Shown here: piece by piece, positions 16,983 through 17,893 of the stretch
Layout: each line of letters starts with the position of its first letter
How positions within the stretch are numbered: position 1 is the stretch's first letter
IMG/VR virus record: IMGVR_UViG_3300030098_006365
Coordinates: 1 to 20,278 of that record
Source of the DNA: a virus
DNA: 20,278 bases
Direction: 5' to 3' (one strand)
The notes under the pieces: generated by a model
Told to the model about the DNA's origin: nothing
Database searches by the model: none
What the model saw: the letters and a program-made list of their open reading frames with translations, nothing else
Made by a program: the position numbers and the translations under genes

Positions 16983-17013
16983 GTCGGCATTGATTCTCCC
17001 CCGAATCGCCGAC
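16983..17013 (+). other. Bulged RNA hairpin after the polymerase gene
   Basis: GTCGGC (16983-16988), bulge ATT, GATTC (16992-16996), loop TCCCCC, GAATC (17003-17007) and GCCGAC (17008-17013) form an 11-base-pair stem with one 3-base bulge. No T run follows, so it is not itself a terminator. It lies between the polymerase stop and the terminator at 17027. It could protect the 3' end of the message or be an RNA-processing site. Confidence 0.6.
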
Positions 17014-17026
17014 ATCGGTGAAGTTT

Positions 17027-17051
17027 CCCCCTCTTTTGAGGGGGTTTTCTT
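17027..17051 (+). terminator. Rho-independent terminator of the replication/lysis operon
   Basis: Perfect stem CCCCCTC (17027-17033), loop TTTT, GAGGGGG (17038-17044), then TTTTCTT. It ends transcription after DNA polymerase. The promoter for the next gene begins at its last bases. Confidence 0.92.
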
Positions 17052-17092
17052 GCAAGTTCCCATAATGTCGCGTACACTCTTGTTCCAGGAGG
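17050..17092 (+). promoter_or_regulatory. Promoter and ribosome site of the ribbon-helix-helix gene
   Basis: TTGCAA (17050-17055) and TACACT (17073-17078) are exactly 17 bases apart, each four of six matches to sigma-70 boxes. The -35 box lies in a perfect palindrome, CTTGCAAG (17049-17056), which could be an operator, for example for the regulator made by the next gene. AGGAGG (17087-17092) is an optimal ribosome site seven bases before the ATG at 17100. Confidence 0.5.
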
Positions 17093-17099
17093 TGCGAAA

Positions 17100-17282
17100 A
17101 TGGATACAACCAAGTGGAAATCAGTCAACGTGCCACGCGACGAATACGAAGTGTTGAAGACAACTGCGAAAAATGAGGGCCGAACATTGTCAGGCCAGCT
17201 CAGATTGATCTTCAAAGAGTGGCAAGATCAAAGAAAAGAACAACTTAAGACACAATTGCAATCGCGAGAGAGGGTAGGTTAG
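17100..17282 (+). CDS. Ribbon-helix-helix DNA-binding protein
   Basis: The 60-residue product begins WKSVNVPRDEYEVLKTTAK and continues with EGRTLSGQLRLIFKEW, the strand-helix-helix pattern of Arc/MetJ-like proteins: alternating residues in the strand (Lys6, Val8, Val10), a helix from Asp13, a Gly turn at 26 and a second helix to about 41. The tail is charged and probably disordered. Such proteins dimerise and bind short inverted repeats, often at their own promoters. The palindrome over its -35 box is a candidate target. It heads a short transcript with the leader/hairpin element and the exported nuclease. Confidence 0.8.
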   Translation: MDTTKWKSVNVPRDEYEVLKTTAKNEGRTLSGQLRLIFKEWQDQRKEQLKTQLQSRERVG

Positions 17283-17283
17283 A

Positions 17284-17358
17284 ATGGACCTCCTTATATA
17301 TGTTTGTGTGTGTACCCCTCGGCGGTCTGGTGCTTTGGCTCCGAGGGGTAATTTATGA
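17284..17358 (+). CDS. Possible 24-residue leader peptide
   Basis: A 24-codon frame starts with ATG at 17284, one base after the upstream TAG, and ends at TGA 17356-17358, overlapping the next start as ATGA. It runs through the whole hairpin at 17313-17350. The peptide starts MDLLIYVCVCTPRR and has no recognisable function. A ribosome translating it would open the hairpin and finish exactly at the next gene's start. Translation is not proven, and the upstream ribosome site (GAGAGGGTAGG) is only fair. Confidence 0.4.
   Translation: MDLLIYVCVCTPRRSGALAPRGNL
17313..17350 (+). promoter_or_regulatory. Hairpin that sequesters the ribosome site of the 43-residue gene
   Basis: TACCCCTCGG (17313-17322) pairs perfectly with CCGAGGGGTA (17341-17350) around an 18-base loop. 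The 3' arm contains GAGGGG (17343-17348), the only good ribosome site for the ATG at 17355, six bases downstream. There is no T run, so this looks like a translational control element rather than a terminator. Confidence 0.6.
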
Positions 17359-17486
17359 GACCTTTACTTCCTTTTGTAAGCACAATCCCTTTAACCAACG
17401 AACAACGCGAACGATTGTGGCGTGTTCGATTAGCGCGTTTTAGGAAAAAATTCAAACCCTACTTGATTAATGGAGGTTGTCCATGA
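17355..17486 (+). CDS. 43-residue basic protein
   Basis: ATG at 17355 has GAGGGG six bases upstream, inside a hairpin arm. The TGA at 17484-17486 overlaps the nuclease start (ATGA). The product begins MRPLLPFVSTIPLTNEQRER and continues with an Arg/Lys-rich helix (WRVRLARFRKKFKPYL) that could contact nucleic acid or membrane. No family is recognised. Stop/start overlaps on both sides support it as a real gene. Its 3' end carries the GGAGG ribosome site of the nuclease gene. Confidence 0.55.
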   Translation: MRPLLPFVSTIPLTNEQRERLWRVRLARFRKKFKPYLINGGCP

Positions 17487-17893
17487 GATACGCCCTGCTT
17501 CTTTTGTTTTTGTTCCCTGCGTGCGCCCTGGCAGAAGAAAAGCCTTGTTTCCCGGTCGATCGGGTCCTGAAAGTCGTTGATGGCGACACCGCTGACGTTT
17601 CTTTACAGCTCGAGCCTTTCTCTATTTACTACAATATTCGAGTTCGAATGCAAGGAATCAATGCCTGGGAGAGCAGAACACGCAATCTGGAGGAGAAAGA
17701 GTTAGGCTTGGCCGCCAAAGCGCGGCTCACGGAGCTGATGTCCGGGCCAGTCATGGTGTGCACCAACGCGCAGGGCAAATTTGGCCGTTGGTTAGGCGTC
17801 TTCCTCGATGCAAACGGCAATTCAATCAATCAGCAAATGGTTGATGAAGGCCACGCACACTACTATGACGGCGGCAAGCGCAAACAGTTCTAG
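17483..17893 (+). CDS. Exported staphylococcal-type (thermonuclease) nuclease
   Basis: I choose ATG at 17483 (136 residues), with GGAGG seven bases upstream. An in-frame TTG at 17477 is less likely. A type I signal peptide is clear: Arg2, a Leu-rich core, and cleavage after ALA at 17. The mature enzyme has the SNase pattern VVDGDTADV (Asp33, Asp35), then VRMQGINAWES, where Arg55 and Glu63 align with catalytic Arg35 and Glu43 of S. aureus nuclease. The calcium ligand Asp40 is replaced by Asn60. GKFGRWLGVF follows, with Arg102 matching Arg87. It should cut DNA or RNA with calcium, outside the cytoplasm. The mature domain is shorter than the S. aureus enzyme. It may degrade incoming or released DNA in the periplasm. 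Confidence 0.9.
   Translation: MRYALLLLFLFPACALAEEKPCFPVDRVLKVVDGDTADVSLQLEPFSIYYNIRVRMQGINAWESRTRNLEEKELGLAAKARLTELMSGPVMVCTNAQGKFGRWLGVFLDANGNSINQQMVDEGHAHYYDGGKRKQF

What the first reader, a model, noticed from the sequence alone, without database searches (positions are those of the whole stretch)
17284..17486. Leader peptide, ribosome-site-masking hairpin and coupled starts ahead of the exported nuclease
A 10-base-pair perfect stem (17313-17322 with 17341-17350) buries GAGGGG, the only good ribosome site for the 43-residue gene. A 24-codon frame runs through the stem and stops exactly on the next start (ATGA 17355-17358). The 43-residue gene in turn stops on the nuclease start (ATGA 17483-17486). 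Nuclease output could thus depend on translation of a leader: either reinitiation or hairpin opening. The dedicated hairpin plus two coupled overlaps are directly visible. The switch behaviour is inferred.
Basis: partly seen in the sequence, partly recalled or inferred. Interest (0 to 1): 0.62.

Follow-up and report, generated by a model that had tools for sequence, protein, structure and literature searches.

The report
Hairpin-guarded relay frame coupling phage genes
In a marine phage, a stem-loop hides the ribosome site of a tiny gene, and a short reading frame running through it probably lets ribosomes arriving from the gene before open it; this kind of switch is known, but close cousin phages join the same genes without it.

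Summary
17313-17322/17341-17350 is the only perfect inverted repeat of 9 bp or more (loop up to 30) in the window. It buries the ribosome site of the 43-codon gene, whose start is the hardest to open of 22 starts examined (16.8 kcal/mol). All six close relatives found keep stem, frame and overlaps. In two, the loop is replaced and 2 nt shorter, yet the eight outer pairs survive, one through a double change, and the leader ends at a TAA 3 nt before the start. The leader peptide is not conserved, so the act of translation, if anything, matters.

The nuclease has its own strong, accessible ribosome site, so nothing shows that it is under hairpin control. The likely effect is on the 43-codon protein, tied to the upstream ribbon-helix-helix gene. 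The sister clade (five contigs) carries the same gene pair joined directly by ATGA, without leader or hairpin. The clades thus differ by about 72 nt holding a hairpin plus relay frame. This is a new, lineage-specific instance of known translational coupling by hairpin opening (phage f1 VII/IX, SGI1 S004-repA, integron attC short frames). No expression data exist.

The parts
17027..17044 (+). Intrinsic terminator CCCCCTCTTTTGAGGGGG followed by TTTTCTT, closing the polymerase operon
   Evidence: conserved in the relatives
17050..17078 (+). Promoter-like TTGCAA-17-TACACT (TATACT in all relatives aligned), probable start of the operon; inferred
   Evidence: in the window itself below the scan threshold
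17100..17282 (+). Small ribbon-helix-helix (Arc/CopG-like) protein gene, 60 codons, upstream partner
   Evidence: RHH_5 E=5e-4, below Pfam cut-off; Arc-like PHROG E=0.005; strongly conserved, pN/pS 0.08
17284..17358 (+). 24-codon leader (relay) frame, starts 1 nt after the previous stop, ends on the next start (ATGA)
   Evidence: frame kept in 7 of 7 relatives including the window (21-26 codons), peptide not conserved
17313..17322 (+). 5' arm of the hairpin, TACCCCTCGG
17341..17350 (+). 3' arm of the hairpin, CCGAGGGGTA, holding the ribosome site GAGGGG (17343-17348)
17355..17486 (+). 43-codon gene (p43), small basic protein of unknown function, the masked gene
   Evidence: pN/pS 0.09
17471..17475 (+). 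GGAGG, the nuclease gene's own ribosome site, accessible
17483..17893 (+). Staphylococcal-nuclease-family nuclease with signal-peptide-like N terminus
   Evidence: Pfam SNase E=8.8e-8; phrog_452 endonuclease E=1.3e-28

Best explanation
It is a hairpin-plus-relay-frame module in a phage mRNA. The hairpin keeps ribosomes from starting the 43-codon gene by themselves. A ribosome finishing the ribbon-helix-helix gene stops 30 nt short of the stem. That ribosome (or a fresh one) starts the short frame one base further on, melts the hairpin by translating through it, terminates on or 3 nt before the 43-codon start, and restarts there with the exposed ribosome site. Production of the 43-residue protein thus follows translation of the upstream regulator gene. 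The nuclease behind it can also start on its own. Shown: the hairpin, its masking in silico, conservation of stem, frame and overlaps, and the absence of the module from sister phages that use direct ATGA coupling. Inferred: translation of the leader, unfolding, reinitiation and any effect on protein amounts.
For: The p43 start has the highest opening cost of 22 starts and 14.5-18.8 kcal/mol in all seven sequences. The outer 8 bp are kept in all, with U-A to C-G, A-U to G-U and U-A to U-G changes only, while the loop is replaced in two. Leader frame open and ending at +4 or -3 of the start in 7 of 7, despite a 2-nt length change and a 6-nt insertion. A footprint on leader codons lowers the cost from 17.5 to about 10 and then near 0, and a ribosome at the previous stop is too far away. 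Sister clade couples the same two genes directly by ATGA, with no SD in the L188 group. Same anatomy shown to work by mutation in SGI1 S004-repA (PMC7826253).
Against: Covariation is statistically weak: one double change, 78 of 500 shuffles as good. The leader peptide is not conserved, its own SD weakens in L085-L087, and other frames here are open too. Two inner pairs are lost in two relatives. No expression or probing data.
Confidence: 0.55

Rival explanations
1. The hairpin is a static brake that keeps p43 synthesis low relative to its neighbours; the leader frame is incidental and not translated.
For: Masking is strong. The peptide is not conserved and several frames are open, so the frame could be chance.
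Against: The start sits one base after the previous stop in 7 of 7 and the frame stays open to the p43 start through two length changes. The sister clade shows the same junction is kept coupled.
Confidence: 0.2
2. The hairpin is a regulated element opened by a signal or trans-acting factor (protein bound to the invariant U/G-rich tract 17300-17312, small RNA, or leader stalling).
For: TGTTTGTGTGTGT just before the stem is invariant in all seven without need from the peptide alone.
Against: No Rfam family; no conserved leader peptide for stalling; opening cost near 17 kcal/mol argues against simple melting by temperature. The U/G tract may merely be unstructured or pair weakly with the start region.
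Confidence: 0.12
3. The hairpin acts on the mRNA itself: a processing, stability or pausing element, or a decayed terminator, separating the regulator transcript from the p43-nuclease part.
For: Cousin phages have GC-rich terminator hairpins with 13-22 nt loops in the stretch behind the polymerase and this regulator gene.
Against: No U run behind the stem in any of seven (TAATTTATG, TGACTTATG, TAACTTATG, TGACTCATG); not listed as terminator-like.
Confidence: 0.08
4. One reading: nuclease output depends on leader translation or hairpin opening.
For: p43 and nuclease overlap by ATGA; an untranslated p43 could reduce nuclease translation or mRNA stability.
Against: The nuclease has its own strong accessible ribosome site in all relatives.
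Confidence: 0.05

Closest known systems
Phage f1 genes VII/IX translational coupling, RNA-unfolding case (reviewed in PMC12548453)
   Same: Very short phage gene whose translation opens a hairpin just ahead of the next start; 4-nt overlap
   Different: In f1 the opener is a real protein gene; here it is an unconserved peptide frame, and the stem contains the ribosome site itself. No sequence kinship looked for or expected
SGI1 S004-repA leader coupling, with similar plasmid replication leaders (PMC7826253)
   Same: Leader frame runs into an inverted repeat that masks SD and start of the next gene, stop and start close together; leader translation in cis was shown to be required
   Different: Controls plasmid replication; leader longer, repeat covers the start; no antisense RNA found or sought here
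Short reading frames in integron attC stem-loops and attI1 ORF-11 (PMC8876359)
   Same: Ribosome leaving the preceding gene restarts on a short frame inside a stem-loop, prevents its folding and hands over to the next gene; the peptide sequence hardly matters
   Different: attC is a recombination site; no integrase or repeat cassette here
ATGA termination-reinitiation at overlapping genes (PMC6728339)
   Same: 4-nt overlaps at p43 and at the nuclease; the only link between regulator gene and p43 in the sister clade
   Different: Here a hairpin and relay frame are interposed
Translation attenuation leaders (ermC, cat, cmlA; PMC8876359)
   Same: Leader frame and masked ribosome site
   Different: No conserved stalling peptide, no conserved alternative hairpin, target is not a resistance gene

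Membership tests
Translational coupling by RNA unfolding (f1 VII/IX, SGI1 S004-repA type) | Secondary structure over the downstream ribosome site | tested here: met
   seven of seven sequences
Translational coupling by RNA unfolding (f1 VII/IX, SGI1 S004-repA type) | Upstream frame runs through the structure and stops near the downstream start | tested here: met
   stop ends at +4 (5 sequences) or -3 (2 sequences)
Translational coupling by RNA unfolding (f1 VII/IX, SGI1 S004-repA type) | Downstream expression falls when upstream translation is stopped in cis | not testable with these tools
   needs reporter fusions
ATGA termination-reinitiation pair | 4-nt stop/start overlap | tested here: met
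   (leader/p43 in 5 of 7; p43/nuclease in the aligned relatives)
Translation attenuation (ermC/cat/cmlA type) | Conserved leader peptide able to stall ribosomes | tested here: not met
   pN/pS 0.60 over six codons against 0.08-0.10 for the genes; C-terminal half entirely different in L085 and L087
Translation attenuation (ermC/cat/cmlA type) | Two alternative hairpins | tested here: inconclusive
   consensus shows one extended hairpin; no systematic search for alternatives was made
Intrinsic terminator or attenuator | U run directly behind the stem | tested here: not met
Riboswitch, thermometer or other Rfam family | Match to a covariance model at gathering score | tested here: not met
   only sub-threshold matches

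The most novel reading that the evidence does not exclude
A lineage-specific cassette of about 72 nt (hairpin plus relay frame) was gained between two genes already coupled by ATGA, converting direct coupling into gated coupling; its loop is exchangeable, and the invariant U/G-rich tract before it receives a regulatory signal.
Probability: 0.12. Interest if true: 0.5.

Novelty: new member of a known kind. Interest (0 to 1): 0.3.

Why it matters
It gives a natural with/without comparison: the same two phage genes joined directly by ATGA in one clade and through a hairpin and relay frame in its sister. That offers a cheap test between the two models of translational coupling (RNA unfolding versus the same ribosome carrying on) that a 2025 review (PMC12548453) describes as not settled. 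Otherwise it is a small regulatory detail of one group of uncultured marine phages.

Tried and rejected
Anti-SD-like ACCTCCTTA in the leader (17288-17296): not conserved, dropped. Internal promoter TTGCAA-18-TAGAAT at 17256-17285: 9 of 12 matches, but the region has fewer such sites than its shuffles (5 against 8.8), dropped. Mobile hairpin: the loop core pattern occurs only in the same relatives; no similar stretch in isolated phages. p43 in bacterial genomes: none; in isolated phages: none credible. Distant ribbon-helix-helix relatives: mostly no leader, hairpin or p43 behind the gene. tRNA remnant before the terminator: ARAGORN finds none. Rfam: no match at gathering score. Operator motif ATCGCRTA: not enriched in the window. 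Descent of the window hairpin from the cousins' large-loop terminators: a resemblance only (GTCTGGT..GC....GGCT), not tested.

Full report
Where it is. The window is a 20,278-base record of a phage from a public viral collection; its polymerase is 51-55% identical to those of Pelagibacter phage HTVC023P, phage 023Pt_psg01 and phage DSL-LC04. Behind the polymerase, an intrinsic terminator (17027-17044) and a promoter-like TTGCAA-17-TACACT (TATACT in relatives; inferred) precede a small operon: a ribbon-helix-helix protein (17100-17282; weak RHH_5 and Arc-like hits), the 24-codon frame (17284-17358), the 43-codon gene p43 (17355-17486) and an SNase-family nuclease with a signal-peptide-like N terminus (17483-17893).

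Observation. Stem, coordinates and overlaps are as described. The stem is the only perfect inverted repeat of 9 bp or more with a loop of up to 30 in the window; shuffles give 0-1 of 10 bp or more, so its presence alone is weak evidence. Placement is what stands out: among 22 gene starts the p43 start is the costliest to open, 16.8 kcal/mol, the next being 14.3. Four-base overlaps occur elsewhere in this genome and are ordinary.

Relatives. The same six close relatives came back from searches with the nuclease, the ribbon-helix-helix protein, p43 and a DNA pattern (each search missed none or one of them). All keep the gene order, the leader ATG one base after the previous stop, the hairpin, and the overlap or near-overlap at p43. 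Opening costs at p43 are 14.5-18.8 in all, while the nuclease start costs 8.5-10.4 and has its own GGAGG. In L085 and L087 the loop and inner stem are replaced and 2 nt shorter. The outer 8 pairs persist, one as C-G instead of U-A; the inner two become U/U, and a different 4-bp inner helix appears in some predicted folds. L082 and L084 have A-U to G-U; several have U-G in place of U-A. All changes in the outer 8 pairs keep pairing, but they are few and the shuffle control is not significant (78 of 500). I count this as supportive, not as proof.

Leader frame. The frame is open in 7 of 7 (21-26 codons). In L085 and L087, where the loop is 2 nt shorter, the frame ends at a TAA 3 nt before p43; elsewhere it ends on ATGA; L083 has a 6-nt insertion that keeps frame. 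The peptide is not conserved: pN/pS is 0.60 over six codons, a very small sample, against 0.08-0.10 for the three genes. That suits a frame whose translation matters rather than its product; it equally suits an untranslated stretch. Other frames here are also open.

Mechanics. With a ribosome-sized footprint blocked in the folding model, the cost of freeing the p43 start is 14-18 while the ribosome is on the first seven leader codons, about 9-12 on codons 8-16, and 0-5.5 on codons 17-25. A ribosome ending the ribbon-helix-helix gene at 17282 is 30 nt short of the stem. So if p43 is to be coupled to the regulator gene, the leader must relay (inference).

Sister clade. L179 (L259), L258, L188 (L255), L192 (L256) and L257, five contigs with polymerases 79-82% identical, form the sister group of the window and L162 with support 93/86, just short of the tool's mark for a firm branch. 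They carry a p43 homologue (BLASTP E = 4e-10 for L179 and 3e-6 for L188 against the window's, single comparisons) straight behind the ribbon-helix-helix gene, stop and start overlapping as ATGA, without leader or hairpin. The p43 start has no SD in the L188 group and a weak to moderate one in L258 and L179. The L258 record also encodes the nuclease, 57% identical, behind p43 (a short masked stretch lies inside). The two clades thus keep the regulator-p43 junction tight by different means. Gain or loss of the module cannot be polarised, because no p43 was recognised in the other polymerase relatives. The hairpin core was found nowhere else in IMG/VR.

Interpretation. The best reading is gated translational coupling: hairpin closed by default, opened by ribosomes passing along the relay frame, with restart at p43. 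Known parallels are phage f1 VII/IX (in PMC12548453), SGI1 S004-repA (PMC7826253), short frames in integron attC stems (PMC8876359) and ATGA reinitiation (PMC6728339). Terminators and drug-type translation attenuation were considered and do not fit what was tested. What p43 does is unknown; it is short, basic and conserved.

Limits. Everything rests on sequence and folding: seven close sequences, energies at 37 C on isolated RNA, host unknown.

Noticed in passing
L176:3448-3590, L177:2378-2525, L178:6829-6968, L184:2386-2530, L186:7308-7453, L189:3160-3300, L191:5994-6130, L209:7442-7586, L216:6045-6190: Cousin phages share a structured 5' leader behind the polymerase: promoter-like TTGCTTATCCCATAC..TATA, a small hairpin, near-invariant CTCCGTAGTTGA, then a 7-9 bp stem with a 13-15 nt loop (GGTTGCCCCCGGC) and a T-rich tail just before the SD and start of a gene beginning ME..FVDGL.AKKP. 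No Rfam family matches the loci scanned. It looks like an attenuator or small RNA; the CUCC could pair with the SD.
   Followed up: partly
L184, L185, L186 (about 440-490 bases after the polymerase stop): Inverted repeat TATGCGAT-N12-ATCGCATA (N10 in L185) overlapping a promoter-like region, a candidate operator for the ribbon-helix-helix repressor; the half-site is not enriched in the window.
   Followed up: partly
L190:7061-7111 (-): Glutamine riboswitch aptamer (Rfam RF01739, E=1.4e-9) between polymerase and ribbon-helix-helix gene of a cousin phage.
   Followed up: no
window 16990-17026: Second hairpin GTCGGCATTGATTC...GAATCGCCGAC directly before the terminator, conserved in the relatives that reach this far; the relatives carry a tRNA-like stretch before it, but ARAGORN calls no tRNA.
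   Followed up: partly
window 17300-17312: Invariant TGTTTGTGTGTGT tract before the hairpin in all seven sequences; the reason for its conservation is unexplained (weak pairing with the p43 start region, or a binding site).
   Followed up: partly
L087 / L162 upstream of the ribbon-helix-helix gene (A1 columns 138-217): About 80-nt insertion between the -10 box and the ribbon-helix-helix gene in one relative, with an AAACCGTTTG inverted repeat.
   Followed up: no
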